From: Thermoplasmatota archaeon
Lineage (GTDB): Archaea > Thermoplasmatota > E2 > DHVEG-1
DNA length: 36,307 bases
Assembly: GCA_016932245.1 (NCBI GenBank)
Contig: JAFGDG010000018.1
Location: forward strand, 1-36,307
Direction: 5' to 3'
A program made the translations under genes and the position numbers. Below are positions 4,723-21,585 of the stretch, piece after piece (position 1 is the stretch's first letter; the number at the start of each line of letters is the position of its first letter). Under the pieces are notes generated by a model. The model was not told where the DNA came from and ran no database searches. It saw only the letters and a list, made by a program, of their open reading frames with translations.

Positions 4723-5487
4723 ATGAGTAAAGAAAGTCAGGTCCTTGTGGAGAAGCCGGACGTAAAAAAAGCAGCAGATGTGGAAAAGAAAGCAGGAGTA
4801 TTAGAAGTATTCATAATGGGTAAAAGATACCAAGTTCCAACTGGTCTAACGATAATGAAGGCCATCGAATACGCAGGTTATAGATTCATTAGGAGTTGTG
4901 GTTGTAGGGCTGGATTTTGTGGTGCATGTTCTACAGTGTATAGGATAGAGGATGAACAGAAACTCAGTTTTGCGCTTGCCTGTCAAAAACTTGTAGAAGA
5001 CAAGATGTATCTTGTTCAGCTTCCTTTTGTTCCTGCAGCGAAGGCAGAATATGATATTGAGAAGCTTGAACCAAGTGAAAGCACCCTTTTGACCATCTAT
5101 CCTGAGATCGCCCGATGTGTTTCATGCAATACCTGTACAAAATCATGCCCTCAAGACATCGAGGTCATGAAGTATATCCAGATGGCAATTAGAGGAAACA
5201 TTACGAGATGTGCTGAAATTTCCTTTGATTGCATCCAATGTGGTCTTTGTGCTATGAGGTGCCCTGCCGATATTAAACATTATCATGTGTCGCAGCTTGC
5301 TAGAAGACTGCGCGGCAAATATATTGATAAAAAATCAAAAAATCTTGCAAAACGTCTAGAGGAAATTGAGAATAAAAAGTACGATGGAGATATTGAAAAA
5401 CTAATGAAAAAGGACAAGAAAGACATTATGGAGATGTACAGCGGTAGGAAGATCGAAGCAGAAGAGGGAAATGCGGGAGGCGATTAG
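4723..5487 (+). CDS. Succinate dehydrogenase/fumarate reductase-like iron-sulfur subunit (2Fe-2S plus 2x4Fe-4S)
   Basis: Plant-type 2Fe-2S motif CGCRAGFCGAC...C, then CVSCNTCTKSCPQD and CIQCGLCAMRCPADI. Followed immediately by the flavoprotein. Confidence 0.85.
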   Translation: MSKESQVLVEKPDVKKAADVEKKAGVLEVFIMGKRYQVPTGLTIMKAIEYAGYRFIRSCGCRAGFCGACSTVYRIEDEQKLSFALACQKLVEDKMYLVQLPFVPAAKAEYDIEKLEPSESTLLTIYPEIARCVSCNTCTKSCPQDIEVMKYIQMAIRGNITRCAEISFDCIQCGLCAMRCPADIKHYHVSQLARRLRGKYIDKKSKNLAKRLEEIENKKYDGDIEKLMKKDKKDIMEMYSGRKIEAEEGNAGGD

Positions 5488-7134
5488 TTGAAGATGATAG
5501 AGGGGTACCCAGACTACATGATGAAGTCCATAAAACTTGTTGAGAAAAAGCGGGATAAAAACATGTCTATTGCTGTCAAACCTATGAATATGAAAGAGCG
5601 AGATCAAGTACTCAAAAAATATCATCCTGATTATATGGAAAGTACGAAGAGAAAAGTAAAGGTGGGTGTTGACAAGGGAAAAGTGTTATATAATGGCATC
5701 GTTGACCTCCTTGAAGCCAAGTCAATCTTGGATCCAAAGGCTGTGGACCTAAGTAAAATAGATTATGACGTTGACCTACTAATTATAGGGGGAGGAGGTG
5801 CAGGAACAGTTGCTGCACTTTTTGCCTATGAATCTGGAGTTCCCGCAGAAAAAATATTGATTGTTACAAAGCTTCGTCATGGTGATGCGAATTCCATGAT
5901 GGCTCAGGGCGGAATACAAGCGGCTGACAGACCGCAGGATAGTCCAGTGTTGCACTATTTAGACATTTATGGTGGGGGACACTTCACCAACAAACCTGAG
6001 TTAGCGAGAGCACTTTCATTAGACGCTCCAAAGATCATCAATTGGCATGAAGACCTTGGTGTGATGTACGACCGCCAAGAGGATGGAGAATTTCAAGAGC
6101 TATCTGGAGGGGGTACCTGTAGAAATCGTATGCACAGTGCCAAGGACTACACGGGCATGGAACTATTGCGGAATATTAGAGACAAAGCAAGAAACTTAGA
6201 TATCCCCGTACTAGAATTTTGCCCCGTAATCGAGTTTCTCATGGACGATAAAGGACAAGTGGCTGGCGGTATCGCCTTCAACATAGAGACGTACGAGTAT
6301 TATGTAATTAGAGCAAAAGCTACTATTTTGGCTACGGGGGGAAGTGGACGATTACACCTCTCAAATTATCCAACTACCAATCATTATGGTGCAACGGGTG
6401 ATGGTCTTATCATGGCATATCATGTTGGAGCTAATCTTCTTGATCTAGATACCATACAAATCCATCCCACAGGAGATGCATACCCGGAACCAATAGTGGG
6501 AATTCTTTCAACAGAAAAGATACGTGGACTGGGTGCAGTACCACTCAACAAGAACGGCGATCCCTTTGTATTTCCGTTGGAACCTCGTGATGTAGAATCA
6601 GCAACATTTATTCGGGAATGTAAGAACGGAAATGGCCTTGTAACCCCTACAGGAATGCCAGGAGTATGGCTAGATTCACCTATGATAGATATCATTCATG
6701 GAAAAGGCACCATAGAAAATAAACTTGCAGGCGAGGTGAGGAAGTTTAAACGATTTGGCATTGACATGACAAAACATCCAATATTGGTATACCCAACACT
6801 TCACTACCAAAATGGCGGGGTGGAGATAAATGAGAAATGTGAAACAAAAGTCCCTGGTCTCTTCGCAGCTGGCGAAGTTACAGGAGGAGTACACGGTAAG
6901 AATCGCCTCATGGGAAATTCCCTTCTCGACTATAATGTATTTGGCCGTCGGGCTGGCATCTATGCTGCGAAATATATTAAGAAAGCCAGGATTGGAAAAC
7001 TCACGCTAAGCCATATAGAGAGATATAACAAAATGATAGAAAAGGCAAGCATCAAAACAAAGAATAAAGCACCTATACTATTACCAGAATATCGAGGGGA
7101 GATGGCAATTTCCAGAGCGCTTGACATATTATAA
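5488..7134 (+). CDS. Succinate dehydrogenase/fumarate reductase flavoprotein subunit family
   Basis: FAD motif DLLIIGGGGAGTVAAL, RHGDANSMMAQGGIQAA, SGGGTCRNRMHSAKDYTG and GGVHGKNRLMGNSLLDYNVFGRRAG. TTG start directly after the preceding stop. Confidence 0.88.
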   Translation: MKMIEGYPDYMMKSIKLVEKKRDKNMSIAVKPMNMKERDQVLKKYHPDYMESTKRKVKVGVDKGKVLYNGIVDLLEAKSILDPKAVDLSKIDYDVDLLIIGGGGAGTVAALFAYESGVPAEKILIVTKLRHGDANSMMAQGGIQAADRPQDSPVLHYLDIYGGGHFTNKPELARALSLDAPKIINWHEDLGVMYDRQEDGEFQELSGGGTCRNRMHSAKDYTGMELLRNIRDKARNLDIPVLEFCPVIEFLMDDKGQVAGGIAFNIETYEYYVIRAKATILATGGSGRLHLSNYPTTNHYGATGDGLIMAYHVGANLLDLDTIQIHPTGDAYPEPIVGILSTEKIRGLGAVPLNKNGDPFVFPLEPRDVESATFIRECKNGNGLVTPTGMPGVWLDSPMIDIIHGKGTIENKLAGEVRKFKRFGIDMTKHPILVYPTLHYQNGGVEINEKCETKVPGLFAAGEVTGGVHGKNRLMGNSLLDYNVFGRRAGIYAAKYIKKARIGKLTLSHIERYNKMIEKASIKTKNKAPILLPEYRGEMAISRALDIL

Positions 7135-7148
7135 GAAACGGTGAATTA

Positions 7149-7403
7149 ATGATTGAAATTAAAGACGACTGGTGCAAGGGCTGTAAAGTCTGCATCGAAC
7201 GATGTCCTGTTGGTGCCCTTGAGGAATCAGATAGGCTTAACAAAAAAGGCATTCGCCCACCTAAACTAAAAGAAAAGAATGAGTGTAATTTTTGCAGACT
7301 TTGTGAATTAATATGCCCCGATCTTGCAATAACCGTAATTCCTGACAGGGAAGTTAAAAAAGATGTTAAAAAAATCCTTCTAAGTCCAACTGGGGGAAAA
7401 TAA
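7149..7403 (+). CDS. korD: 2-oxoacid:ferredoxin oxidoreductase delta subunit (ferredoxin)
   Basis: Two 4Fe-4S motifs, CKGCKVCIERCP and CNFCRLCELICP. First of a korDABC arrangement. Confidence 0.88.
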   Translation: MIEIKDDWCKGCKVCIERCPVGALEESDRLNKKGIRPPKLKEKNECNFCRLCELICPDLAITVIPDREVKKDVKKILLSPTGGK

Positions 7404-8585
7404 ATGAAATATAAACGGGATCCTGAATTAATACGAGATGTTTTAGGTAAAAAAGTGCAATTTATACTTGGAGACATGGCCTGTGTCTATGGTGGTCTGC
7501 TCGCAGGTTGTTCATTTTTTGGTGGGTACCCCATTACCCCTGCATCGGAAGTTGCTGAGGGAATGGCACGAAGACTTCCAAGAGTAAAGGGAACATATAT
7601 TCAGATGGAAGATGAAATCGGCAGTATTGCCGCAGTTATCGGAGCTTCTTGGGGCGGTGCCAAATCTATGACTGCAACATCGGGTCCTGGTTTTTCACTT
7701 ATGATGGAAAACTATGGCTATGCTGTAATGACAGAAACGCCCTGTGTCATTGTTAACATCCAAAGGACTGGCCCTTCGACAGGCCAACCCACTCTTGGTG
7801 CTCAGGGCGATATGATGCAAGCTAAATGGGGATCACATGGTGACTTCGAAGCAATAGCGTTGGCTCCTAGCACTGTTCAAGAATGCATGGATTTTACAAT
7901 AGAGGCGTTTAATCTTGCTGAAAAATATCGTAATCCTGTTTGTGTCATGGCTGATGGGGAAATAGGGCATCTTAGGGAGAGGGTAGTTATCCCAGATGAA
8001 AAAGACTTGAAAATAGTTAATCGAGTCCGTGCTACAATTGATAAAAAGAAATTCATACCTTTTACAGATTCTCAGACTAGGAAAAGTAAGGTACCTGATT
8101 TCCCAACTTTTGGAACAGGTTATCGTACCTATGTTACTGGCCTTACCCATAATGAGAAAGGTTTTCCAGCAACTGACAAGCAACCAGATCATGAAAAACT
8201 TGTGAAACGAATTACTTCAAAAATCACCGATGATCTCGATAAGCTCACTAATGTTGAAAAACTGTATCTAGATGATGCGGAAACTGTTTTTGTTACCTAT
8301 GGTGCATCTGCTCGACCTGCAGAGTCGGCTGTGGAGATGGCAAGAGCCAAAGGCAAAAAAGTTGGCATGCTTCGTCTTAAGACTGTTTGGCCATTCCCAT
8401 TCAAAGAGATTCAAAAACTAGCAAATAAAGTTGATAAAATAATCGTTCCTGAAATGAATCTTGGGCAGATTGTTCATCCAGTTCGTGAATATGTGGAAGG
8501 TAAATGTAAAGTGGTTAGCGCTCCGAAAATTGGTGGAGAGATGCATCTACCTAGCGAGCTTTATAGATATCTGGAGGAAAAATAA
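7404..8585 (+). CDS. korA: 2-oxoglutarate:ferredoxin oxidoreductase alpha subunit
   Basis: GGYPITPASEVAEGMARRLP, QMEDEIGSIAAVIGASWGGAKSMTATSGPGFSLMMEN and NIQRTGPSTGQPT are 2-oxoacid oxidoreductase alpha signatures. Confidence 0.9.
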   Translation: MKYKRDPELIRDVLGKKVQFILGDMACVYGGLLAGCSFFGGYPITPASEVAEGMARRLPRVKGTYIQMEDEIGSIAAVIGASWGGAKSMTATSGPGFSLMMENYGYAVMTETPCVIVNIQRTGPSTGQPTLGAQGDMMQAKWGSHGDFEAIALAPSTVQECMDFTIEAFNLAEKYRNPVCVMADGEIGHLRERVVIPDEKDLKIVNRVRATIDKKKFIPFTDSQTRKSKVPDFPTFGTGYRTYVTGLTHNEKGFPATDKQPDHEKLVKRITSKITDDLDKLTNVEKLYLDDAETVFVTYGASARPAESAVEMARAKGKKVGMLRLKTVWPFPFKEIQKLANKVDKIIVPEMNLGQIVHPVREYVEGKCKVVSAPKIGGEMHLPSELYRYLEEK

Positions 8586-8586
8586 T

Positions 8587-9462
8587 ATGCCAGAGATTAG
8601 AACGGCAGATGAACTTAATAAAAAATACTTGCGTGAGGAAATGTGGCCCACTATTTTTTGTAATGGTTGCGGGCATGGCGTAGTATTGGACTATACCTTT
8701 TGGGCAATTGAAGAACTTAATTTAGACATGGATAAAACCGTTTTTGTTTCAGGCATTGGTTGTTCATCTCGTCTACCCGGCTACATTAATGCAGATGGTT
8801 TGCATACAACCCACGGCAGAGCTATAGCATTTGCAACTGGCATTAAGGCAGCAAACCCTGATTTGAACATCATTATTTTTACAGGAGATGGTGACTGCTC
8901 AGGAATAGGTGGTAACCATCTCATTCATGCAGCTCGGCGAAACATCGATGTGACCGTCATTATGATCAATAACTTTACATACGGAATGACTGGCGGTCAA
9001 CTCGCGCCAACGGCACCACTGGGAAGTATTGCAACAACTGCCCCATATGGAAATATTGAACATCCTTTTAACATATGTGAACTTGCAAAAGCACTTGGCG
9101 CCAATTATGTTGCTCGATGGACTGTTTCCCACCCATATCAACCGATAAAATCAATAAAAGAGGGAATACAGAAAAAGGGTTTTTCACTTGTTGAATTTTT
9201 AGCCCCTTGCCCAACTGCTTATGGTCGCCGTAATAAACTTGGCGACATCAAAAAACTTTGGCAATGGTATGACGATAATACAATCTTAATTGAAGACTAC
9301 GACAAGATAATGAGATACGGATCTGATGAAGAAAAAGAGAGAATAAAAAATAAAATACAAACCGGTGTTTTTCAGAATATAGAAAAACTTGGTTTTTTTG
9401 AACAATATGAAAAGCTTCTGGGAAGATTACAAGAAAAACAAGGCAAGGGGGAGAAGAAATGA
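8587..9462 (+). CDS. korB: 2-oxoglutarate:ferredoxin oxidoreductase beta subunit (TPP-binding)
   Basis: FCNGCGHG, GIGCSSR, HTTHGRAIAFATGIK and GDGDCSGIGGNHLIHAARRNIDVTVIMINNFTYGMTGGQ (TPP motif). Likely start is ATG 8587, not 8461. Confidence 0.92.
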   Translation: MPEIRTADELNKKYLREEMWPTIFCNGCGHGVVLDYTFWAIEELNLDMDKTVFVSGIGCSSRLPGYINADGLHTTHGRAIAFATGIKAANPDLNIIIFTGDGDCSGIGGNHLIHAARRNIDVTVIMINNFTYGMTGGQLAPTAPLGSIATTAPYGNIEHPFNICELAKALGANYVARWTVSHPYQPIKSIKEGIQKKGFSLVEFLAPCPTAYGRRNKLGDIKKLWQWYDDNTILIEDYDKIMRYGSDEEKERIKNKIQTGVFQNIEKLGFFEQYEKLLGRLQEKQGKGEKK

Positions 9463-10001
9463 AAAAAGAAATGCGTATTTGCGGTTTCGGTGGTCAGGGG
9501 GTAATACTATCCGGTTTCATTTTTGGTAAGGCAGCATCTGTTTTTATGGATTATAACGCAGTTCAAAGCCAGTCATACGGACCTGAAGCCCGCGGCGGGG
9601 CTGCTAGATCTGAAGTTATCATTTCTGATGAAAAAATAGGTTACCCTCGGCCGACAAGCGTTGATTTTTTTATTGCGATGTCACAGGAGGCTTTTGATAC
9701 GTATCGAAAGGATATCCGTAAGGATACCGTAATTGTTATTGACCCTGATCTAGTCCCTAAACATGATATTGGAAGACCAGTGTATAAGATTCATGCTCAG
9801 AAAATAGCTGAAAAACTAGGTAATAAGATTGTTACCAATATCGTCATGGTTGGCGCAGCCACAGCCATTTTTGATGTGCTAAAACATGATGCTGTGCAAG
9901 AAGCAGTTATCGATAGCGTACCAAAAAAGTTTGTGGATCTTAACAAAGAAGCTTTTGAACGAGGCCTTGAGGCAGGTAAGAATGCCAAAAATAAGCTATA
10001 A
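9459..10001 (+). CDS. korC: 2-oxoacid:ferredoxin oxidoreductase gamma subunit
   Basis: RICGFGGQGVILSGFIFGKAA and QSQSYGPEARGGAARSEVIISDEKIGYP. Overlaps the korB stop. Confidence 0.92.
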   Translation: MKKEMRICGFGGQGVILSGFIFGKAASVFMDYNAVQSQSYGPEARGGAARSEVIISDEKIGYPRPTSVDFFIAMSQEAFDTYRKDIRKDTVIVIDPDLVPKHDIGRPVYKIHAQKIAEKLGNKIVTNIVMVGAATAIFDVLKHDAVQEAVIDSVPKKFVDLNKEAFERGLEAGKNAKNKL

Positions 10002-13000
10002 CAAAAAAATTGATCACGATTTGGGAATTCCCCTTGAGGATGATTATTTTTATAATGAACCAGAAGAAATCTTAGAAGTAAATCAAATGGAAGAAGTAGA
10101 AAGCGAGGTAAAGCTTTCTGAAAAACTAAAAACAAAGAAAGAAAAAAGGGTGATAAATGCTGATGTTCTCATAGTGGGTGCTGGCATCTCTGGTATGCAG
10201 GCAGCGCTTGATATCGGGGACAAGGGTTACAAGGTTGTTCTCATCGATAAAACCTCCACGATTGGAGGGTCGATGGTTAAACTTGATAAAACATTTCCAA
10301 CAAATGATTGTTCTATTTGTACCGCTGCACCCAAGATGGTGGAACTTTCGCGTCATCCAAATATCGAATTAATCACATATGCTGAACTCAATTCACTTGA
10401 GGGTAAACAGGGGGATTTTACAGCAAATGTTTGGAAAAAAAGCAAATATGTTGATCCAGATAAATGTACAGGATGTAATGATTGCGCAGAAGTTTGCCCT
10501 GTTAATGTTGTAAGTTCTTTTGATGAAAAAATTACCACAAGAAAAGCAATATATATTGAGTTTCCACAGGCAGTACCAATTGTTTACACGATTGACCATG
10601 AAAACTGCGTGGGCTGCGGGTCATGTGACCGGGTCTGTGAGCCTGAAGCAATAAGTTTTCTTGAAAAATCTGAAGAAATAGAGGTAAACGTAGGGAGCGT
10701 TATTGTTGCAACGGGTTTTGAAGTATTTGAACCAATTGAAATGAGAAAAGAATATGGCTATGGCAAATACAAAAATGTAATAACTGCAATGCAGTTCGAA
10801 AGATTATTGTCTTCTTTTGGCCCTACTGAGGGAAAGCCTCTACGACTTTCAGATGGTAAAAAACCCAGGAACATTGCATGGATTCAGTGCGTTGGTTCTC
10901 GCAGTAAACAACTAGGTTTTCCATATTGTTCACGTGTGTGTTGTATGTATGCAACAAAAGAAGCATCCATTGTTAAAGAAGCAAATCCGGATGTCGGTAT
11001 TTCAATATACTATATGGACATCCGTGCGTATGGAAAGGATTTCCAGCAGTACTATAATCATGCCAAAGATCTAGGTGTTAATTACATCCGTGGACGGCCT
11101 TCTTCAATTTATGAAAACAAAGATAAAAGTCTCACGATCCGTTATAAGGATACACTTACTGGCGAGATAAAAGAAGATATCGTTGATATGCTTGTGTTAT
11201 CGACTGCAATCATTCCTTCAAAGGATAACAAAAAACTTGGCAAATCTCTTGGGATTGAAGTTGACGAAAATGGTTTTTTCAAACAACAGTCTTTACTAAA
11301 TAATCCAATTCAATCAACAAAAGAAGGGGTTTTTCTAGCAGGTTGCATTCAAGGCCCGAAGGATATTCCCGATAGTGTCTCCATGGCAAGCGGTGCTGCG
11401 GCAAAAGCCGTCGCTCCAATCAAAAATAGAAAAAGGCACATAGGTAAAGACTTCCCAAACGAAATGGATATTTCTGGTGATGAGCCTCGCATTGGCGTAT
11501 TCATCTGCCATTGCGGCAAAAATATCGCAAGTTACCTGGATGTTGAAAAAGTTACTAAAGCTACCGAAAAACTGCCAAATGTGGAGCATGCCGAACATGT
11601 GATGTTTGCCTGCTCCGAGGACAGTGGTAAAAAAATTAGAGAAACAATTAAAGAAAAAAAATTGAATAGAGTTATTGTTGCTGCTTGTTCACCGCGTACT
11701 CATGGCGGTCTATTTCAGGATACTCTTATGGAAGCTGGGCTAAATAAGTATCTTTTTGAAATGGCCAATATACGTAATCATTGTTCCTGGGTTCATTCTG
11801 ATGATTGGGACGCAGCAACTAAAAAAGCAACATCCCTAGTAAAGGCCGCTGTGGCAAAGGTTCGCCTGCTTGAACCACTCAGCGAAGAAGAGTTTTCAAT
11901 TATCCCTAAAACACTTGTCATAGGTGGTGGTGTCTCAGGTATGAAGGCTGCTCTTGCACTTGCAAGCATGGGTGTTGAATCTGTTTTACTTGAGAAAAAT
12001 TCAAAACTAGGGGGGAGACTTAGAGAACTTCATTCAATGTTTCCATCCGATATAAAAACTGAAAAGATTATTAACCCACTGATTAAAGAGGTCGCAAAAA
12101 ACAAGTTAATCAGCGTCATGACTGATGCCGAGCTTACCAATGTAGATGGTTTTATTGGAAACTATAAAGGAATTGTTAAACAGAAGGGTAAGGAAAAAAA
12201 AATAGAGTTTGGAACAATCATTGTTGCAACTGGGTTTAAGGAAATTGATCTTGAAGGAGAATATCAGTATCTTAAAAATAATAATATTTTGTCGCAAACT
12301 GAACTCGAAAAAAGAGTTAAAAATAACTCTTTGACTTTGAAAAAGAAGCTAAAAAATATTGTTTTTATTAATTGTGCTGGCGCAATGGATGAAAAACGTC
12401 CATATTGCTGTCGTGTTGGCTGTGGCGTATCAATTAAAAACGCGAAACTCGTTAGCGAGAAATTCCCAAGTTCTAAAGTGTATATTCTGTATAGAGATAT
12501 GAGGGTCTTTGGTAAGGAGGAAGAAGAATATTACTCAGATGTGTTGAAGACTCACCATGTTACTACTATTCGTTATGCTGGTGATAAAAAACCAACGATC
12601 ATCCTTGACAAAGACGATCCTAAGAACGGTCCTGTATCTGTAAAAGTCCTTGACGATACTTTAAACGAGGAGATAGAAATTTCTGCCGACCTTGTGGTTC
12701 TTACAATCAATACTGAGGGTGAGGTTTCAACAGAGGCGTTGAAAAACATGCTTAAAATACCAGCTGATGCAGGGGGGTTTTTCATGGAAGCACATGCAAA
12801 GATTCGGCCATTGGATTTTGCAACTGATGGCATTTATTTGTGTGGTGCTGCACATTATCCGAAAAACTTGGTTGATTCAATTGCACAAGCAGAAGGTGCT
12901 GCATCTAGAGCAGCCATCCCTATTATGCAAGAAACAATGAAGGGCGAGGGGGCTGTTTCAGAGGTTAATGAAGATCTTTGTAGTGGTTGTGGGACATGTA

Positions 13001-13206
13001 AGTCCATATGTACCTATTCCGCTATTGAAATCCTGCCTCGTTCTGACAACCCTGAACACGCTGTCGCGATTGTGAACAAGGCGTTATGCAAAGGATGTGG
13101 TGCGTGTGCCGGTGCGTGTCCATCTGGTGCAATAGACCAAAAAGGATACAAAAGCAATCAGATTGATGTAATGCTGGAAGCTCTCTTAAAGGAGGTGACT
13201 GCCTGA
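9982..13206 (+). CDS. hdrA: Tandem HdrA-HdrA protein (HdrA1, ~1074 aa), heterodisulfide reductase subunit A-like
   Basis: Two FAD-binding units (ADVLIVGAGISGMQAALDIG; TLVIGGGVSGMKAALALA), TFPTNDCSICTAAPKMVELSRHPNI, IGVFICHCGKNI, RVIVAACSPRTH, and several ferredoxin motifs. The ATG at 9982 is preceded by AGGT and is preferred over the ORF-track start 9886. Confidence 0.9.
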   Translation: MPKISYNKKIDHDLGIPLEDDYFYNEPEEILEVNQMEEVESEVKLSEKLKTKKEKRVINADVLIVGAGISGMQAALDIGDKGYKVVLIDKTSTIGGSMVKLDKTFPTNDCSICTAAPKMVELSRHPNIELITYAELNSLEGKQGDFTANVWKKSKYVDPDKCTGCNDCAEVCPVNVVSSFDEKITTRKAIYIEFPQAVPIVYTIDHENCVGCGSCDRVCEPEAISFLEKSEEIEVNVGSVIVATGFEVFEPIEMRKEYGYGKYKNVITAMQFERLLSSFGPTEGKPLRLSDGKKPRNIAWIQCVGSRSKQLGFPYCSRVCCMYATKEASIVKEANPDVGISIYYMDIRAYGKDFQQYYNHAKDLGVNYIRGRPSSIYENKDKSLTIRYKDTLTGEIKEDIVDMLVLSTAIIPSKDNKKLGKSLGIEVDENGFFKQQSLLNNPIQSTKEGVFLAGCIQGPKDIPDSVSMASGAAAKAVAPIKNRKRHIGKDFPNEMDISGDEPRIGVFICHCGKNIASYLDVEKVTKATEKLPNVEHAEHVMFACSEDSGKKIRETIKEKKLNRVIVAACSPRTHGGLFQDTLMEAGLNKYLFEMANIRNHCSWVHSDDWDAATKKATSLVKAAVAKVRLLEPLSEEEFSIIPKTLVIGGGVSGMKAALALASMGVESVLLEKNSKLGGRLRELHSMFPSDIKTEKIINPLIKEVAKNKLISVMTDAELTNVDGFIGNYKGIVKQKGKEKKIEFGTIIVATGFKEIDLEGEYQYLKNNNILSQTELEKRVKNNSLTLKKKLKNIVFINCAGAMDEKRPYCCRVGCGVSIKNAKLVSEKFPSSKVYILYRDMRVFGKEEEEYYSDVLKTHHVTTIRYAGDKKPTIILDKDDPKNGPVSVKVLDDTLNEEIEISADLVVLTINTEGEVSTEALKNMLKIPADAGGFFMEAHAKIRPLDFATDGIYLCGAAHYPKNLVDSIAQAEGAASRAAIPIMQETMKGEGAVSEVNEDLCSGCGTCKSICTYSAIEILPRSDNPEHAVAIVNKALCKGCGACAGACPSGAIDQKGYKSNQIDVMLEALLKEVTA

Positions 13207-13628
13207 AAAAAAAGTTAGAGAGCAATAAAGAAATCGATGCTATCAAGTTTAAAGAAGGTGGGCTTGCAACAGAAGTCGAGGAGCTCTCTGGAGAAAATCT
13301 TTTTTCATGCTATCAATGTGGAACTTGTTCAGCTGGTTGCCCATTTATCGAGGATATGGATTTAGGTCCCGATAAAGTCATTAGATATGTGGTATTGGAC
13401 AGAACAGAAGTGTTAAATTCGAATACAATTTGGATGTGCGCATCCTGCTATACTTGTGCAGAAAGATGTCCTCGTGATTTGAACATTACAAAGATTATGG
13501 AAGCGCTACGTCAAATAATTCTTAGAAAAAAAATTGATCGGACAAAAGTTGTAAAAATTTCTAAAAAGGAAAAAGAAACTATTCCTCAGTTGGCATTTGT
13601 TAGTTTATTTAGAAAAAATATAGGTTAA
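13203..13628 (+). CDS. hdrC: Heterodisulfide reductase subunit C-like (HdrC1), probable CTG start
   Basis: Reading upstream of the ORF-track start gives KKKLESNKEIDAIKFKEGGLATEVEELSGENLFSCYQCGTCSAGCPF, which restores the first CxxCGTCxxGCP cluster. The second cluster is CASCYTCAERCPRD. SD AAAGGAGGTGA is at 13188-13198. Confidence 0.85.
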   Translation: MKKKLESNKEIDAIKFKEGGLATEVEELSGENLFSCYQCGTCSAGCPFIEDMDLGPDKVIRYVVLDRTEVLNSNTIWMCASCYTCAERCPRDLNITKIMEALRQIILRKKIDRTKVVKISKKEKETIPQLAFVSLFRKNIG

Positions 13629-13660
13629 GACATATAAAAATATATATTAAAGGATATTTA
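13629..13660 (+). promoter_or_regulatory. Possible internal AT-rich TATA-like promoter upstream of hdrB1-mvh genes
   Basis: gacatataaaaatatatattaaag in a 63-nt gap between hdrC1 and hdrB1, inside an otherwise tightly packed cluster. Confidence 0.35.
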
Positions 13661-13691
13661 GAAAGACATGCTAATATAGTGGGGCAATATC

Positions 13692-14594
13692 ATGAAGCTA
13701 TTGTACTATCCTGGATGTACGCTTAAGACCTCTGCAAAAAACCTTGAGAGATCCGCATTTGCCGTTATGGAAGCTTTGGGCCACGAAATGGTAGAAATGG
13801 AGGATTGGAACTGTTGCGGAGTTGTTGCATCTCTTACTGATGATGATCTCATGCATCATCTTGCCCCATTGCGAAGTTTGATACATGTGGAAGATCAAGG
13901 AGAAGATAAGGTTGTAACGCTCTGTGATATGTGTTGTAATACACTTAAACAAACCAACTTAAGAGTGAAAGAAAACTCTGACGACCTTGAGACGCTCAAT
14001 GCGTTTATGGATAGAGAAAATGATTATAAGGGGACTGTAACGGTCATTCATTTTCTTGAGTTTTTACGTGATGAAATTGGTTTTGATGTGATTAAGAAAA
14101 AAGTAAAACGTCCCCTCAAAGGCATACGAATTATGCCGTATTATGGGTGTATGCTTCTCCGTCCACGTGAAGTAGCAATTGATGATGCAGAAGAACCTAC
14201 TATTCTAGGGGACCTTCTTTCTGCGCTTGGCGCAGAAGTTATTGATAATCCATTCAAAATTGAATGCTGTGGTTCATACCATACCGTAGATGAAAAAGAA
14301 TCGGTTTCTAAGAGAGCGCATAGAATTACAAATTTTGCAACTGAGGGGGGTAGTGACGCCATGGTGCTTTCATGCCCGCTTTGCAGGTTTAATCTCGACG
14401 CGCGAGGGAAAGAAGCGGAAAAAATGTTTAAGGACTACAAACAAATACCAGTATTTTACTATACTCAACTTATAGCAATTGCACTTGGTTTAGACCAAAA
14501 CGTGTGTGGTTTCGACCAACATGTTGTAGATCCGCTTCTATTGTTAAAGAAAAAAGGAGTCTTCGAAAAAGAGGATAAAATAATCAAAATTTGA
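13692..14594 (+). CDS. hdrB: Heterodisulfide reductase subunit B-like (HdrB1)
   Basis: Two CCG-domain motifs: NCCGVVAS...LCDMCC and ECCGSYHT...LSCPLC. Confidence 0.9.
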   Translation: MKLLYYPGCTLKTSAKNLERSAFAVMEALGHEMVEMEDWNCCGVVASLTDDDLMHHLAPLRSLIHVEDQGEDKVVTLCDMCCNTLKQTNLRVKENSDDLETLNAFMDRENDYKGTVTVIHFLEFLRDEIGFDVIKKKVKRPLKGIRIMPYYGCMLLRPREVAIDDAEEPTILGDLLSALGAEVIDNPFKIECCGSYHTVDEKESVSKRAHRITNFATEGGSDAMVLSCPLCRFNLDARGKEAEKMFKDYKQIPVFYYTQLIAIALGLDQNVCGFDQHVVDPLLLLKKKGVFEKEDKIIKI

Positions 14595-15622
14595 TAAAGA
14601 TGGTGTTAGCGATGGTTAAAGAAAAAAAGAAGGAAGAACCGACAAAAAAGAAAAAACTGCAACTTGCATTTTATTGGGCAGCAAGTTGCGGCGGATGCGA
14701 AATAGCAGTACTTGATATTGATGAAAAGATACTCGATGTCATCGGGCTTGCAGATATTTTATTTTGGCCTGTTGCCATGGACTTTAAGTATAAAGATGTT
14801 GAAGCGATGAAAGACGGAAATATCGACGTGTGTTTCTTTAACGGTGCAATCCGGACAGAAGAACAAGAACATATTGCAAAATTACTGCGAAAGAAATCAA
14901 AGGTTCTTGTTGCCTTTGGTGCTTGTGCAGTAAACGGAGGGATCCCTGGCCTTGCAAATATTGCAAACCGAGAAGAAGTATTTCATACTGCGTATCTTCA
15001 AAATCCATCAACTGACAACCCAAAAAAGACGGTCCCAAAAACCAGCGTAAAGGTCAAAGAGGGTACACTAACGCTACCAGAATTTTATGACACCGTAAAA
15101 ACGCTTGACCAGACCGTTGATGTTGATTATTATTTGCCTGGCTGCCCGCCAACACCTGAAATTATTATGACTGCTGTTGGCGCTATTGTCGAAAATAAGC
15201 TACCGCCAAAAGGATCAGTTATTGGCCCAATGAAGTCGGTGTGTGATGAATGCCGATTTGAAAAAAGTGAGAAAAAAATTACAAAAGTTAGAAGAGTCTA
15301 CGAAGTTGATAAAATCGAAGAGAAGTGTTTACTAGAACAAGGAATTATTTGCCTTGGCCCAGCAACTCGTGGCGGGTGTGACGCACGTTGTCTTGATGCC
15401 AATATGCCCTGCACTGGTTGTGGTGGCCCTACACCAAATTCTCTTGATCAGGGTGCAAAGATGATGTCGGCACTTGCATCCATACTTGGGCTTGAAGGGG
15501 AAGAAAAAATGAGTGATGAAGAAGTTGAAAAATTAATCAATCAAGTGGTTGACCCAGTTGGAACGTTCTACAAATATGGTTTGCCAAATGCTCTGATCAA
15601 CAGGAAGGTGATGAGAAAATGA
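14591..15622 (+). CDS. mvhG: F420-non-reducing (Mvh-type) [NiFe] hydrogenase small subunit
   Basis: FYWAASCGGCEIAVLDID, GACAVNGGIPGLAN and DYYLPGCPPTPE, plus further Cys motifs. The start may be ATG 14612 (GGTG upstream) rather than TTG 14591. Confidence 0.9.
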   Translation: MIKMVLAMVKEKKKEEPTKKKKLQLAFYWAASCGGCEIAVLDIDEKILDVIGLADILFWPVAMDFKYKDVEAMKDGNIDVCFFNGAIRTEEQEHIAKLLRKKSKVLVAFGACAVNGGIPGLANIANREEVFHTAYLQNPSTDNPKKTVPKTSVKVKEGTLTLPEFYDTVKTLDQTVDVDYYLPGCPPTPEIIMTAVGAIVENKLPPKGSVIGPMKSVCDECRFEKSEKKITKVRRVYEVDKIEEKCLLEQGIICLGPATRGGCDARCLDANMPCTGCGGPTPNSLDQGAKMMSALASILGLEGEEKMSDEEVEKLINQVVDPVGTFYKYGLPNALINRKVMRK

Positions 15623-17079
15623 AAACGATTACCATCGATCCGATTACCCGGCTAGAGGGGCACGGAAAAATTAGTATTTTCTTGAATAACAACGGCGATG
15701 TGGAAAATGCCTATCTGCAGATTCCCGAACTCCGTGGTTTTGAGCGGTTTAGCCAAGGGAGAAGAGCAGAGGATATGCCACAAATAACAAGTCGTATCTG
15801 TGGTGTGTGTCCTGTTGCCCATCATTTTGCTGCAACAAAAGCACTCGATGCTGCGTTTCACGTTGACCCGCCATCTGCTGCAAAAAAATTACGAGAGCTC
15901 ATGTATATGGGATACTACATCTACGACCACATCCTCCACTTTTATTACCTCGGTGGCCCTGATTTCGTTGTTGGTCCTGATGCACCACCTGCAAAAAGAA
16001 ACGTAATAGGAGTCATTGAAAAAGCAGGGGTAGAGATTGGAAAGGAAGTAATCAAACATCGTGCATATGGCCAGAAAATCACCGCGATACTTGGCGGAAA
16101 AGCAACCCATCCAGTCTGTGGTCTTCCTGGAGGCATTTCCAAAGGACTCGACAAGGATGAAGTCAAAGACATCAAAACAATGGTAGACTCATGCATAGGG
16201 TTTGCACAATTTTCGCTGAAACTCTTTGACGACATTGTACTCAAAAACAAATCCTATGTTGACCTTATTCTAAGTGATCCGTATCAACTAGCAACGTATA
16301 ATATGGGCCTTGTGGATAAAAACAATAAGGTCAACTTCTACGATGGCAAAATTCGGGTAACAGACCAAAAAGGAAACGAAAAAGTAAAATTTGAGGTGAA
16401 AGACTACTATAAAAACATAGCAGAACACGTCGAAGAATGGACCTACATAAAATTCCCTTATTTGAAAGCAGTGGGGTGGAAAGGTCTTCGGGATGGTAAA
16501 GAAAGTGGGATTTATCGAGTTGGACCTTTAGGTCGACTCAATGCCGCTGAAGGAATGGCGACGCCTCTTGCGGATAAAGAATACAAAAGATTCTACGAGA
16601 CACTCGGCGGTAGAGCAGTAAATTCAACACTTGCGTTCCACTGGGCAAGATTAATAGAACTACTCTATGCAACAGAGCGAGCAAAAGAACTGATTAACGA
16701 TCCTGAAATCACTTCTCAAAAAATCAGAAATCCCGTTGGTGAACCTGGTGAGGGAATGGGCGTTACCGAAGCAGCTCGAGGCACTCTCATCCATCACTAC
16801 AAACTCGACAAGAACGGATTAATCGAGAAAGCCAATCTTATCGTTGCTACAACGAACAACGCAGGAGCAATAAACATGTCAGTTCGAGACGCAGCAAAAG
16901 GACTAATTTCAAAAGGAAAAGTCAGTGATGCCACCCTGAACATGGTGGAAATGGCGTTCCGTGCCTATGATCCTTGCTTTGCGTGTGCAACCCATACGCT
17001 TCCAGGTGGTATGCCCCTAGAAGTGAAGATATTTGACCATAACAAAAAGTTATACAAAACACTGCACCAGAACCTTTAG
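15619..17079 (+). CDS. mvhA: Mvh-type [NiFe] hydrogenase large (catalytic) subunit
   Basis: N-terminal L1 motif RICGVCPVAHH and C-terminal L2 motif DPCFACATH, so all four NiFe ligand cysteines are present. A C-terminal extension follows ...ATH, expected to need protease processing. Confidence 0.95.
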   Translation: MKTITIDPITRLEGHGKISIFLNNNGDVENAYLQIPELRGFERFSQGRRAEDMPQITSRICGVCPVAHHFAATKALDAAFHVDPPSAAKKLRELMYMGYYIYDHILHFYYLGGPDFVVGPDAPPAKRNVIGVIEKAGVEIGKEVIKHRAYGQKITAILGGKATHPVCGLPGGISKGLDKDEVKDIKTMVDSCIGFAQFSLKLFDDIVLKNKSYVDLILSDPYQLATYNMGLVDKNNKVNFYDGKIRVTDQKGNEKVKFEVKDYYKNIAEHVEEWTYIKFPYLKAVGWKGLRDGKESGIYRVGPLGRLNAAEGMATPLADKEYKRFYETLGGRAVNSTLAFHWARLIELLYATERAKELINDPEITSQKIRNPVGEPGEGMGVTEAARGTLIHHYKLDKNGLIEKANLIVATTNNAGAINMSVRDAAKGLISKGKVSDATLNMVEMAFRAYDPCFACATHTLPGGMPLEVKIFDHNKKLYKTLHQNL

Positions 17080-17093
17080 AGGAATGCATTCAT

Positions 17094-17570
17094 ATGAAGA
17101 CCATAGTCCTTGGAATAGGGAACCTGATACTTAGAGACGATGGCGTAGGAATACATGTTGCAAATGAGGTGAAAAAACAAATCAATAATCCAGATGTAAC
17201 TGTGGACGAAGCAATAACTGGCGGAATGAACTTACTGGATTTACTACTAGGATATGACAAAGCAATACTAATCGATGCGGTAAAATCAGATGACGGGGCT
17301 CATGGGGAAGTAAGGAGAATACCTATCAAGGAGTTCAGCACAATGCATTCATGCAATCCTCATGATGTATCATTAATTGAAGCAATAGATATGGCTAAAA
17401 AACTAGGTGAATCACGAATTCCCAAAGAAATAATCATCATCGGTGTGATGATGAGAAAAATACCATGTGAATTTGGCGAAGATCTAAGTGATAAGATTGC
17501 AGCGGCCGTCCCGGAAGCTGTAAAATTAACATTAAATGAGATAAAAAAAGATATGAAAATTTCAAGTTGA
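17094..17570 (+). CDS. Hydrogenase maturation protease (HycI/HyaD family)
   Basis: VLGIGNLILRDDGVGIHVANEV and DAVKSDDGAHGEVRRI. Directly follows the large-subunit gene. Confidence 0.92.
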   Translation: MKTIVLGIGNLILRDDGVGIHVANEVKKQINNPDVTVDEAITGGMNLLDLLLGYDKAILIDAVKSDDGAHGEVRRIPIKEFSTMHSCNPHDVSLIEAIDMAKKLGESRIPKEIIIIGVMMRKIPCEFGEDLSDKIAAAVPEAVKLTLNEIKKDMKISS

Positions 17571-17582
17571 GGTGAAAAATAT

Positions 17583-18002
17583 ATGGCAAAAGAATTTGAA
17601 CCAAACATAATCGGGTTTTTGTGCAATTGGTGTTCCTATGCAGGTGCAGACCTTGCTGGCACAAGTCGCATCAAGTACCCGCCAAACATCAAATCCATAC
17701 GAGTGATGTGCTCTGGTCGCGTCGATCCAGTATTTGTACTCGAAGCACTCAAAAAAGGAGCAGATGGCGTACTTATTGCAGGATGCCACCCTGGAGATTG
17801 TCATTACCAGTCAGGCAACTACAAGACTAACAGACGTATTAAACTATTAAAGAAATATCTCAATGAAATGGGCATCGAGCCTGAACGTGTACGATTTGAA
17901 TATATCTCTGCTTCTGAGGGGCAAAAATTTGCGCAAGTAGTTACTGACTTTGTCGCTGAGCTGAAAAAACTAGGACCAAGCCCACTCACGGTAGAAGCAT
18001 GA
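17583..18002 (+). CDS. mvhD: MvhD-like [2Fe-2S] electron-transfer subunit (paralog 1)
   Basis: FLCNWCSYAGADLAGTSR, RVMCSGRVDPVFVLEALKKGADGVLIAGCHPGDCHYQSGNY and FEYISASEGQKFA are typical of MvhD. Confidence 0.93.
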   Translation: MAKEFEPNIIGFLCNWCSYAGADLAGTSRIKYPPNIKSIRVMCSGRVDPVFVLEALKKGADGVLIAGCHPGDCHYQSGNYKTNRRIKLLKKYLNEMGIEPERVRFEYISASEGQKFAQVVTDFVAELKKLGPSPLTVEA

Positions 18003-19429
18003 AGATTGACATACCAAAACTCAAACAAATAGTCGGCGAGGGCAACGTCCGAGATAACATCGCTGATCTTTATGTCTATGCATCAGATGCATCAGTGCAC
18101 AGCAAACTGCCTGATGTAGTGGTGCGACCGAGCTCTACAAAAGAAGTACAAGAAGTCGTGCGCTATGCCAATAAAAACAAAATACCCGTGGTTGCTCGAG
18201 GAGCAGGGTCAGGAATGAGTGGGCAAACCGTTCCCCTCAGTGGCGGTATCATCCTTGACATGAAAAAAATGGATAAAATTATTGACATTCGTTCCCAAGA
18301 TTTACTCTGCAAAGTACAGCCTGGTGTTATTAACGACGAACTAAACCGCGTATTGAAATCATATGGTTTCTTTTTCCCACCAACACCATCTTCTGGCAGA
18401 ATCTGTACCATTGGAGGGATGATTGGTACCAACGCCTCAGGAAATCGTTCTGTAAAATATGGAGCAACGCGAGATGCCGTATTAGGGATGAAGGTAGTAC
18501 TTGCCAATGGCGATTTGGTAACCCTTGGTTCAAATACAAAGGTCGACTCATCAGGGTATCAGCTGGCACGATTAATAGTGGGATCAGAAGGCACATTAGG
18601 AATTGTCGTCGAGGCCACTCTTCGAATATCCCCTGTACCAAAATATCGTGCAATGGGTGTCGCTAACTTTGCAACTCTTAGAGATGCAGGTAACATGATA
18701 AGTGAAACTATCGCCTCAGGGGTAACTCCATCAATGCTTGAATTGATGGACAACGTGGCAATAACAGCAGTAAACAACGCACAAAACCTAGGATTGCCTG
18801 ATGTCGCAGCAATTGTTATCTTTGAATGCAATGGCATGGTAAAAGAAGCGGTAGATTACGAAATAAATCAAATAAAGGAAATCTCGAAGAGCAACCATGG
18901 AACGGGAATAAAGGTTACCGATGATCCTGATGAGATGGTTCGCATCTACAATGGCCGGAAGAAACTTTTTCCCTCACTTTCCAAATATGCCGAAGGATTG
19001 TATACAACGGCACTTGCTGATGATATGGCAGTGCCGATGTCGAAAATTGCAGATACGGTTCAAAAAATTCATGAAATTGCAAAGAAAAATAATGTGGTTA
19101 TGAGCGCGTATGGCCATTGCGGTGCTGGACTGATCCATACAAAAATTCTCATGGATACGACCAAAAAAGCACAATGGCAAGGTGCAAAAAGGGCAGTGAA
19201 AGAAGTATATGAGTACGTGCAATCTATGGGGGGTACAACTTCCGGTGAACATGGTATTGGGTTTTCCAAAGGGCAATCGTTTAAGGAAGAAAAACAAGAC
19301 TCTCTTGCCATGATGAAAGCAATAAAAAAAGCACTTGACCCCAATAACATTCTTAATCCAAATAAATTGATGGATTCACCTGACGATTGGCTAACCGCAA
19401 CGCCATTACGTTATCAGGTGAGTGCATAA
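17999..19429 (+). CDS. FAD-linked 2-hydroxyacid oxidase (GlcD / D-lactate dehydrogenase family)
   Basis: PCMH-type FAD domain VVRPSSTKEVQEVVRYANKNKIPVVARGAGSGMSGQTVPLSGGIILDM and C-terminal GEHGIGFSKG...LDPNNILNPNKL. Confidence 0.88.
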   Translation: MKIDIPKLKQIVGEGNVRDNIADLYVYASDASVHSKLPDVVVRPSSTKEVQEVVRYANKNKIPVVARGAGSGMSGQTVPLSGGIILDMKKMDKIIDIRSQDLLCKVQPGVINDELNRVLKSYGFFFPPTPSSGRICTIGGMIGTNASGNRSVKYGATRDAVLGMKVVLANGDLVTLGSNTKVDSSGYQLARLIVGSEGTLGIVVEATLRISPVPKYRAMGVANFATLRDAGNMISETIASGVTPSMLELMDNVAITAVNNAQNLGLPDVAAIVIFECNGMVKEAVDYEINQIKEISKSNHGTGIKVTDDPDEMVRIYNGRKKLFPSLSKYAEGLYTTALADDMAVPMSKIADTVQKIHEIAKKNNVVMSAYGHCGAGLIHTKILMDTTKKAQWQGAKRAVKEVYEYVQSMGGTTSGEHGIGFSKGQSFKEEKQDSLAMMKAIKKALDPNNILNPNKLMDSPDDWLTATPLRYQVSA

Positions 19430-19451
19430 GAAATAATCTGTATTCGAGGGA

Positions 19452-20549
19452 GTGAATTTGGCAGCAAAAACAAAAAAAACGAGAAAGCATCTAGAGCAAT
19501 ATGAAAGAGAAATGAACATGTGCATACGTTGCGCATATTGTTTTGAGAAGTGCCCGGTCATTAAAGAAGTTCAGTGGGATACTGATGGCGCCCGTGGAAA
19601 GGTAATAATGAGTTACGGGCTACTCACTGGAGAATTAGAACCTTCACAATATATTGCTGACAAGCTCTTCCGTTGTACATTTTGCCGCGATTGTCTTGAC
19701 CGTTGCCCATCAAAAGTAAATATTCTGCATATCATCGCTTCAGCGCGGGCAGAAATTGTTGAGGCAGGGTTTGCATCTGATACTCATAAGTACATAATCG
19801 AGAACATTAAAAAAACGGGCAACATCTATGGTGATACTGAAGTCATCTCACAAGAACAAGAAGGAAAAATCCCACTTTTTATCGGCTGCCAGTATCTAGG
19901 ACGGCCAAACAAAACCAAGAAATATCTTAAAATTTTAGAAAAACTAGACATAAAACCTGCTGTTGTTAAAGAAATTTGTTGCGGCTTTCCCATGGAAGTA
20001 CTTGGATTCAAAGATGACTATGAAAAACATAAAGATAATTTCAAAAAACACTTTCCCTTCAAAGAGGCAATTACTCTTTGTCCAACTTGCACTGTTTTTT
20101 TAAAGGAAGGTCATGAGATTAAAGCAAAACATGTATTGCAAATAATACTCGAAAAGTTACCAAAGGCAAATCTTAACATGAAAGTCACCTACCACGATCC
20201 TTGTGATTTTTCTCGCGGATTAAAAATCATTGAAGAGCCGAGAAAAATACTTGAAAAGCTCGGTGTCGAAATTGTTGAGATGAAAAATAACAAAGAAAAC
20301 TCGCGATGTTGTGGCGGTGGTGGTGGTATTCTAATGACTGATCAGGAACTCTCAAACGATATTGCGAAAAAGCGAATACATGAAGCTTTGGAAACGGGCG
20401 TTGACACATTAGTTACTTCATGTCCTACTTGCGAGACAACACTGAAAAAAGCAGCACAAGAAATCGCTGAATCGGAAGGAAAAACCATCTCAGTCAGAAG
20501 TATTGAAGACATTATATGGAAGGGGTTACAAGATGCTGAACGTTCTTAG
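19452..20549 (+). CDS. Fe-S oxidoreductase, GlcF/HdrD-like (two 4Fe-4S plus two CCG domains)
   Basis: CIRCAYCFEKCPV, CTFCRDCLDRCP, ICCGFPME...LCPTC and RCCGGGGGI...SCPTC. GTG start at 19452 or TTG at 19458. Confidence 0.85.
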   Translation: MNLAAKTKKTRKHLEQYEREMNMCIRCAYCFEKCPVIKEVQWDTDGARGKVIMSYGLLTGELEPSQYIADKLFRCTFCRDCLDRCPSKVNILHIIASARAEIVEAGFASDTHKYIIENIKKTGNIYGDTEVISQEQEGKIPLFIGCQYLGRPNKTKKYLKILEKLDIKPAVVKEICCGFPMEVLGFKDDYEKHKDNFKKHFPFKEAITLCPTCTVFLKEGHEIKAKHVLQIILEKLPKANLNMKVTYHDPCDFSRGLKIIEEPRKILEKLGVEIVEMKNNKENSRCCGGGGGILMTDQELSNDIAKKRIHEALETGVDTLVTSCPTCETTLKKAAQEIAESEGKTISVRSIEDIIWKGLQDAERS

Positions 20550-21585
20550 GCTTGAACAATTGCCTGGCCAACAGTCAATGCTTGTGTTTCATGCACTTGC
20601 ACGAATGGGATTTGAAGGACTTGTTATAGTCTCACCAAACGTTCCTCTTGCATCAATAGGATATTTCCAAGATGCAACTAAAGAAATAGATCTCGAATAT
20701 TGCAAACAGGCAAAGATTCCAGTTATGCGGCGTGAGGTTGGCGGAGGCGCAACATATCTCGATCGCAATCAGATTTTCTATCAGCTCATTTGGCAGAAAG
20801 GTAATTCTCAGTTTCCGACACGAATTAAAGATGTCTTTCCGTATTTATCACAACCTGCTGTTGACACCTATGGTGATTTTGGGATTCAGACCATGTTCCG
20901 ACCAGAGAATGACATTATTACTAAAGACCATCGTAAAATTGCAGGTGAGGGAGGTGGCGATATCGGCGACAGCATGGTATTTGTCGGTGGCATTCTTATG
21001 GATTTTGATTATGTGACAATGAGTAAAATTTTGAAAGTACCCGATGAAAAATTTCGTGACAAGATCCACAAGTCAATGGAAGAAAATCTGACAACTATGA
21101 AGCGTGAATTAGGCTTTGCGCCAGAAAGAGAAGAAGTCGTCACATCTCTTGTAGGCAACTTTGAAAAGCTCATTGGCACACTCAAACCAATCACGCTAAC
21201 ACAAGACACAATTGATAAAATGATTGAACTTGAAAGGTGGTTCACGAGCGATGCTTTTTTGTATAAAAAAACCCCACGTATTCCCAAAGGTGTAAAAATT
21301 CGTGAAGGGGTGGAGGTTCTTTATAGCACGTATAAAGCTCGCGGAGGGCTCATTCGTACTGCACAAGAGATCAAAGAGAATATGATCGAAACAATCCATA
21401 TTTCTGGGGATTTTCAGTTTTATCCAAAATCAGAACTGTCTGATCTCCAAGAGAGATTAAATAAGACTAAACGTAAAGAGCGAGACATTATCTCAAAAAT
21501 TGAAGATTTTTACGAAAAACATAAGATTGAAAGCCCAGGTGTAGAACCTGAGGATGTTACTGAAGCAATTATGGAGGCGAAATAG
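20533..21585 (+). CDS. lplA: Lipoate-protein ligase A family with C-terminal accessory domain
   Basis: RREVGGGATYLDRNQIFYQLIW, DHRKIAGEGGGDIGDSMVFVGGILMDFDY (catalytic Lys region), and C-terminal YKARGGLIRTAQEIKENMIETIHISGDFQFYP. SD ggaagggg before ATG 20533. Confidence 0.82.
   Translation: MLNVLRLEQLPGQQSMLVFHALARMGFEGLVIVSPNVPLASIGYFQDATKEIDLEYCKQAKIPVMRREVGGGATYLDRNQIFYQLIWQKGNSQFPTRIKDVFPYLSQPAVDTYGDFGIQTMFRPENDIITKDHRKIAGEGGGDIGDSMVFVGGILMDFDYVTMSKILKVPDEKFRDKIHKSMEENLTTMKRELGFAPEREEVVTSLVGNFEKLIGTLKPITLTQDTIDKMIELERWFTSDAFLYKKTPRIPKGVKIREGVEVLYSTYKARGGLIRTAQEIKENMIETIHISGDFQFYPKSELSDLQERLNKTKRKERDIISKIEDFYEKHKIESPGVEPEDVTEAIMEAK

What the first reader, a model, noticed from the sequence alone, without database searches (positions are those of the whole stretch)
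12364..12440. Rearranged cysteine ligands in the second HdrA unit of HdrA1
HdrA2 unit 2 reads QCVGSREDDRPYCSRICC and HdrA3 reads QCVGSRDADHPYCSRICC. HdrA1 unit 2 reads NCAGAMDEKRPYCCRVGCGV. Aligned, S becomes C and the first C of the CC pair becomes G, so the spacing changes from C-x10-C-x3-CC to C-x10-CC-x3-C. HdrA1 unit 1 keeps the canonical pattern (QCVGSRSKQLGFPYCSRVCC). The cluster in this unit may have a changed ligand set and potential, making the two HdrA units non-equivalent.
Basis: partly seen in the sequence, partly recalled or inferred. Interest (0 to 1): 0.65.

Follow-up and report, generated by a model that had tools for sequence, protein, structure and literature searches.

The report
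Relocated iron-sulfur cysteine in archaeal HdrA
In an energy-conserving enzyme of a seafloor archaeon, one of the four cysteines expected to hold an iron-sulfur cluster has moved three residues along the chain, and the same paired swap has evolved at least four separate times, which makes it an apparently working alternative way to hold that cluster and not a defect.

Summary
Unit 2 of the fused HdrA1 (window 9886-13206) reads C-x10-CC-x3-C where other HdrA units read C-x10-C-x3-CC (12373-12423). In M. thermolithotrophicus HdrA numbering this is S400C plus C403G. The site is the flavin-proximal cluster (HA4) of the thioredoxin-reductase domain, on the high-potential route to HdrC/HdrB.

It is not an error. 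The gene is syntenic in the window's family, and a 27-row HdrA1-unit-2 clade spanning two archaeal phyla keeps C400 and G403 without exception.

It is also not a mark of 'the odd unit'. The same pair of changes is in a complete single-unit type I HdrA encoded with HdrC and HdrB in this very genome, and in both units of another fused HdrA whose 73%-identical syntenic ortholog is canonical. One origin is rejected (AU p=2.5e-6); I infer at least four. Five-cysteine forms exist; a form that lost C403 without gaining C400 was never seen.

Best reading: a compensated ligand relocation that keeps a four-cysteine [4Fe-4S] cluster. A changed ligand set is well supported. A changed potential is untested. 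The two units are non-equivalent anyway, because of domain loss. New variant of a known kind.

The parts
9886..13206 (+). HdrA1, fused double HdrA (type II layout); first ATG after the previous stop is 9886, the true start is probably later (for example 9982), since the upstream Kor gamma gene ends at 10001
10135..11424 (+). Unit 1: TrxR-like FAD domain with inserted ferredoxin, no N-terminal HdrA domain; keeps the Cys197 equivalent (codon 10318-10320)
   Evidence: AF2 model pLDDT 88, pTM 0.89, HdrA cores among best PDB matches, TM to target 0.95
10888..10944 (+). Unit 1 canonical cluster motif C-x12-C-S-R-V-C-C (equivalents of C386/C399/S400/C403/C404)
11482..11880 (+). N-terminal HdrA [4Fe-4S] domain at the start of unit 2
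11881..12960 (+). Unit 2 TrxR-like FAD domain, without inserted ferredoxin and without the Cys197 equivalent
12373..12423 (+). Swapped cluster motif C-x10-C-C-R-V-G-C: C386 eq. 12373-12375, C399 eq. 12406-12408, S400->C 12409-12411, C403->G 12418-12420, C404 eq. 12421-12423
12307..12309 (+). E356 equivalent (holds K409), conserved
   Evidence: role from PMC12054007
12436..12438 (+). K409 equivalent (interacts with FAD N5), conserved
   Evidence: role from PMC12054007
12979..13122 (+). C-terminal ferredoxin domain (two 4-Cys sets)
13203..13628 (+). HdrC1 (TTG start overlapping the HdrA1 stop, TTGA)
   Evidence: TIGR03290 below cut-off; syntenic in relatives
13692..14594 (+). HdrB1 (CCG-type)
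14591..18002 (+). MvhG/VhuG-like, MvhA/VhuA-like, HycI-type protease and MvhD1: hydrogenase electron-input module
4723..10001 (+). FrdB, FrdA and the 2-oxoacid:ferredoxin oxidoreductase genes (Kor-type alpha, beta, gamma) directly upstream, conserved neighbours of HdrA1

Best explanation
HdrA1 is a fused (type II) HdrA acting as its own pseudo-heterodimer. In unit 2 the flavin-proximal [4Fe-4S] cluster of the TrxR domain (HA4 equivalent) is held by a relocated ligand set: Cys386, Cys399, Cys400 and Cys404 in place of 386, 399, 403 and 404. Gain of Cys at position 400 and loss of Cys at 403 form a compensated pair, passing most simply through a five-cysteine state, so a four-Cys cubane is kept. 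The cluster still carries the high-potential electron from FAD towards HdrC/HdrB or a bound partner. Shown: the substitutions, their strict pairing, repeated origin, conservation of the bifurcation residues K409 and E356, and presence of the swap in a complete HdrA encoded with HdrBC. Inferred: that Cys400 binds iron, that the cluster stays [4Fe-4S], and its role in electron transfer.
For: C400 and G403 are invariant in the HdrA1-unit-2 clade across two phyla. No unit with G403 and without C400 in 353 units, and none in the 283 sampled without reference to the motif. Swap set: parsimony needs 5 changes, starred branches force 4; one origin rejected at p-AU 2.5e-6, and a common origin of the HdrA1 clade with the type I clade at 5.1e-6. 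Five-Cys HdrA units (CC-x2-CC) exist. The swap is in a complete type I HdrA next to HdrB and HdrC in the same genome, G000:C19. In G074 both units of a fused HdrA are swapped while the syntenic 73%-identical ortholog in G063 is canonical; interior motif codons differ between its two units, which argues against gene conversion. Foldseek places the model on HdrA.
Against: No coordinates were available, so whether Cys400 can reach the iron that Cys403 binds was not measured. I found no spectroscopy for a swapped HdrA. A third position (Gln385) is also lost in the two old swap clades, so the site may have changed more than the cysteine positions. The trees used a short search with SH-aLRT support only, and the added swap/five-Cys examples were found by their motif.
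Confidence: 0.74

Rival explanations
1. The swap tunes the cluster: moving the third ligand to the loop before the helix shifts its potential or its contact with HdrC, and this was selected so that unit 2 handles a different electron branch from unit 1. This can be true together with the best explanation.
For: Strict conservation with changing codons; both units of the G074 protein changed at four ligand positions while 31 other Cys columns were unchanged, which is hard to see as drift; Gln385 lost with it in the older clades.
Against: The swap is not confined to unit 2 or to fused proteins: it is the only TrxR cluster of a complete type I HdrA. Other HdrA paralogs of G074 stay canonical. No measured potential exists.
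Confidence: 0.3
2. Neutral interchange: position 400 can supply a ligand as well as position 403, so five-Cys intermediates lose either one at no cost. This too can be true together with the best explanation.
For: Five-Cys forms exist; repeated independent origin; conservation of K409/E356 and domain layout.
Against: After fixation no reversal is seen within the HdrA1 clade or the type I clade; position 403 becomes Gly every time, never Ala or Ser; two swaps arose in one protein.
Confidence: 0.35
3. The cluster is lost or changed in kind (3Fe-4S, open site or non-cubane), leaving unit 2 as a structural or regulatory half.
For: Unit 2 lacks an inserted ferredoxin and the Cys197 equivalent, so it cannot be a full bifurcating unit alone.
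Against: Four Cys are kept without exception; degenerate sites drift, this one does not. The swap is also in a complete type I HdrA.
Confidence: 0.1
4. Sequencing or assembly error at 12406-12423.
For: None beyond the gene being from a draft MAG.
Against: Same residues in many genera, two phyla and separate assemblies.
Confidence: 0.01

Closest known systems
HdrA of Methanothermococcus thermolithotrophicus HdrABC-MvhAGD (PDB 5ODC) and of M. marburgensis (8RVU) and M. hungatei (7BKB)
   Same: TrxR-like FAD domain with a proximal cluster at the position of C386/C399/C403/C404; K409 and E356 kept; HdrC, HdrB, MvhAGD partners adjacent
   Different: Cys at 400 and Gly at 403 in unit 2; two HdrA halves fused; unit 1 lacks the N-terminal domain, unit 2 lacks inserted ferredoxin and Cys197
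Type II (fused A6+A12) HdrA of methane-metabolizing archaea (PMC12054007) and HdrA3/HdrA4 fusions of ANME (PMC9012536)
   Same: Two TrxR units, complementary Cys197 and N-terminal domain, C-terminal ferredoxin at the end
   Different: The passages of the held texts that I searched do not mention a swapped ligand motif; host is a Thermoplasmatota without McrA; neighbours are Frd and Kor genes in place of Fdh/molybdopterin genes
HdrA2 of Methanosarcina acetivorans (NCBIfam NF040770)
   Same: Best-scoring NCBIfam model for both HdrA1 (1031 bits, cut-off 1100) and the swapped type I HdrA (830 bits)
   Different: Below the curated cut-off in both; MvhD is not fused here

Membership tests
HdrA, soluble heterodisulfide reductase subunit A | TrxR-like FAD domain homologous to solved HdrA | tested here: met
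   E 8e-118 and 3e-151 for units 2 and 1 against HdrA chains; Foldseek top hits all HdrA
HdrA, soluble heterodisulfide reductase subunit A | Canonical proximal-cluster motif C-x10..12-C-x3-CC | tested here: not met
   Met in unit 1, not in unit 2, which has C-x10-CC-x3-C. So unit 2 is a variant of the motif; homology to HdrA rests on the rest of the domain
HdrA, soluble heterodisulfide reductase subunit A | K409 and E356 for bifurcation | tested here: met
   Both conserved in unit 2 and in the clade, except Arg at 409 in the L053/L138-L141 group and Asp at 356 in L049-L052
HdrA, soluble heterodisulfide reductase subunit A | Bound FAD and [4Fe-4S] clusters, bifurcating activity | not testable with these tools
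   No protein, no coordinates with cofactors
Type II (fused) HdrA | Two TrxR units in one chain | tested here: met
Type II (fused) HdrA | Complementary Cys197 (unit 1) and N-terminal domain (unit 2) | tested here: met
   NDCSIC in unit 1, absent in unit 2; HCG domain only before unit 2
Type II (fused) HdrA | Separate origin of the N and C halves | tested here: met
   Units 1 and 2 fall in separate branches of the unit tree
CoB-CoM heterodisulfide reductase in the strict sense | Host makes methane (McrA present) | tested here: not met
   No McrA match in an 89% complete genome, so the disulfide or other acceptor is unknown

The most novel reading that the evidence does not exclude
HdrA has two interchangeable ligand sets for the flavin-proximal cluster, and archaea switch between them under selection to set the potential or partner contact of the high-potential branch of electron bifurcation, sometimes in one half of a fused enzyme and sometimes in both.
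Probability: 0.28. Interest if true: 0.72.

Novelty: new variant of a known kind. Interest (0 to 1): 0.52.

Why it matters
How HdrA sends one electron up and one down in potential depends on the cluster next to the bifurcating flavin. Here nature has repeatedly made the same two-residue change to that cluster's expected ligands, with five-cysteine intermediates and a near-minimal pair of orthologs. That gives a direct way to ask whether ligand position sets the cluster's potential. It also warns that motif searches for C-x3-CC will miss a common and probably working class of HdrA.

Tried and rejected
Sequencing error or frameshift: rejected by conserved orthologs and ungapped alignments. Indel realignment of PYCCRVGC: rejected, flanks align without gaps. 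Variant confined to unit 2: rejected by type I HdrA and L122. My first count, with no five-Cys forms, was a sampling effect and was corrected. Bacterial pattern hits (L132, L143, L144) are not HdrA reading frames. Gene conversion between the two units of L122: disfavoured, as interior codons differ. Cys geometry from the AlphaFold model: not possible, no coordinate file is delivered. Literature: searches for the motif notation with HdrA gave nothing relevant, and the HdrA papers read do not discuss a swapped proximal-cluster motif in the passages found; subscription papers and supplements were not readable.

Full report
WHAT WAS CHECKED. The window (G000 contig 32) encodes a 1106-aa fused HdrA, HdrA1, at 9886-13206. 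Its second TrxR unit reads NCAGAMDEKRPYCCRVGC at 12370-12423. Against the solved HdrA chains the PYCCRVGC stretch and what follows align without gaps. Counting residues along the printed 5ODC chain, the canonical cysteines are C386, C399, C403 and C404; the window's unit 2 has Cys, Cys, Gly and Cys there, with S400 changed to Cys. Unit 1 of HdrA1 and both units of HdrA2 and HdrA3 are canonical.

WHAT THE SITE IS. The motif sits at the start of the helix that carries K409, in the second Rossmann half of the TrxR-like domain (AF2 model, mean pLDDT 88.2, pTM 0.89; best solved matches are HdrA). That these four cysteines hold the TrxR-domain [4Fe-4S] cluster of solved HdrA is established knowledge that I did not re-measure here. 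In the M. marburgensis complex, HA4' takes the high-potential electron from FAD to CoM-S-S-CoB (PMC12350162). K409 and E356, described as the residues that tell bifurcating from non-bifurcating proteins (PMC12054007), are both present in the window's unit 2.

DISTRIBUTION. HdrA1 orthologs in the window's family carry CCR[VI]GC in unit 2 and CSRVCC in unit 1; more distant ones in the order and class do too. The named relatives are Thermoplasmatota MAGs, including M9B1D, SM1-50 and SG8-52-3, which PMC6461988 assigns to Thermoprofundales, Marine Benthic Group D. A pattern scan of 390 genomes of the phylum gave 23 genomes with a match, against 4 matching the reversed control. The clade reaches a second archaeal group, six of 115 genomes. 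In 198 bacterial genomes of one phylum the two hits were chance frames. The locus is syntenic: FrdB-FrdA-KorABC-HdrA1-HdrC-HdrB-MvhG-MvhA-HycI-MvhD in many genera. Artefact is excluded.

IT IS NOT UNIQUE TO UNIT 2. A second pattern, allowing Gly or Cys at 403, found a single-unit, about 660-aa, five-domain HdrA with CCRIGCM in most of the family, including the window's own genome at C19. There it lies beside HdrB and HdrC genes and keeps the N-terminal domain, Cys197, both ferredoxin domains, K409 and E356 (sequence, table). A fused HdrA of genome G074 (L122) has the swap in both units. Its ortholog in G063, 73% identical and in similar gene order, is canonical in both. Of the cysteine columns shared by that pair 31 are unchanged; four of the changed ones are exactly the motif positions. 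The codons inside the two motifs differ between the units, so a gene-conversion tract is unlikely.

INTERMEDIATES AND COUNTS. Some 440-900-aa HdrA have Cys at 399, 400, 403 and 404 as well as 386: the five-cysteine form. In all 353 distinct units: 268 canonical, 71 swapped, 12 five-Cys, 2 others, and none with Gly403 but no Cys400. Because many of the 71 and 12 were found by their motif, the fair sample is the 283 units found by protein similarity: 253 canonical, 27 swapped, 1 five-Cys, 1 gapped, 1 with Gly at 386, none that lost C403 without gaining C400. On a tree built without the motif columns the swap needs 5 changes and starred branches force 4; on a smaller set, one clade for all swapped rows is rejected (p-AU 2.5e-6) and one clade for HdrA1 unit 2 plus the type I group is rejected (5.1e-6). 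Gln385, just before the first Cys, is kept in over 90% of canonical units and in none of the two old swapped clades, though still present in L122: a candidate second-step adjustment.

MECHANISM. Canonical: outer cysteines 399 and 404, third ligand at 403. Swapped: same outer cysteines, third ligand at 400. The strict pairing, the five-Cys state and the Gly at 403 in every case are what is expected if position 400 can take over the iron that 403 binds. I therefore infer that the cubane is kept and the third ligand is relocated. Since a whole HdrA encoded with its own HdrB and HdrC carries only this version, it is very probably competent for electron transfer. Whether its potential differs is open. 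In HdrA1, unit 1 (canonical, with the inserted ferredoxin) is the likelier classical bifurcation site; unit 2, lacking that ferredoxin, would pass electrons between its flavin, the C-terminal ferredoxin and a partner. This asymmetry comes from domain loss and was described for fused HdrA before (PMC9012536, PMC12054007). Electron input would come from the adjacent hydrogenase/MvhD module; the acceptor is unknown, as the genome has no McrA, and the conserved Frd and Kor neighbours suggest fumarate/2-oxoacid metabolism (inference).

VERDICT. Real, conserved, recurrent, and a new variant of a known kind. Limits: no coordinates, trees by quick search, the relatives are mostly MAGs, and papers behind subscription were not readable.

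Noticed in passing
window 22950-27911 and 31209-35696: HdrA2 (1653 aa) and HdrA3 (1495 aa) are fused double HdrA that also carry an NfnB/GltD-type NAD(P) module inside the ferredoxin region of unit 1; HdrA2 has an extra second piece of that module. This combines the published type II and type III layouts in one chain.
   Followed up: partly
window 4723-18002 and L032, L036, L040, L043-L045, L047, L050-L051: FrdB-FrdA-KorABC next to HdrA1-HdrC-HdrB-MvhGA-MvhD is conserved across genera, often with HdrC-HdrB directly beside FrdB-FrdA, which suggests that fumarate reduction or succinate oxidation is wired to the Hdr complex.
   Followed up: partly
G000:C19:24691-26685 (L187:4692-6686, minus strand): Own-genome single-unit 665-aa HdrA with the same swapped motif, beside HdrB and HdrC genes.
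   Followed up: yes
L154, L190, L196, L198-L202, L204-L206: HdrA6-like and related proteins with five cysteines (CC-x2-CC) at the flavin-proximal cluster, in several families of the phylum.
   Followed up: partly
window 13203-13628: HdrC1 appears to begin at a TTG that overlaps the HdrA1 stop (TTGA) and is truncated or missed by ATG-only gene calling.
   Followed up: partly
G074 and G063 (L207, L208): These two genomes hold an unusually large number of HdrA-like matches (35 and 28), in clusters with repeated MvhD genes.
   Followed up: no
window 17999-21585: GlcD-type FAD oxidase, HdrD/GlpC-like protein and a lipoate-ligase-like gene lie between the two Hdr clusters.
   Followed up: no
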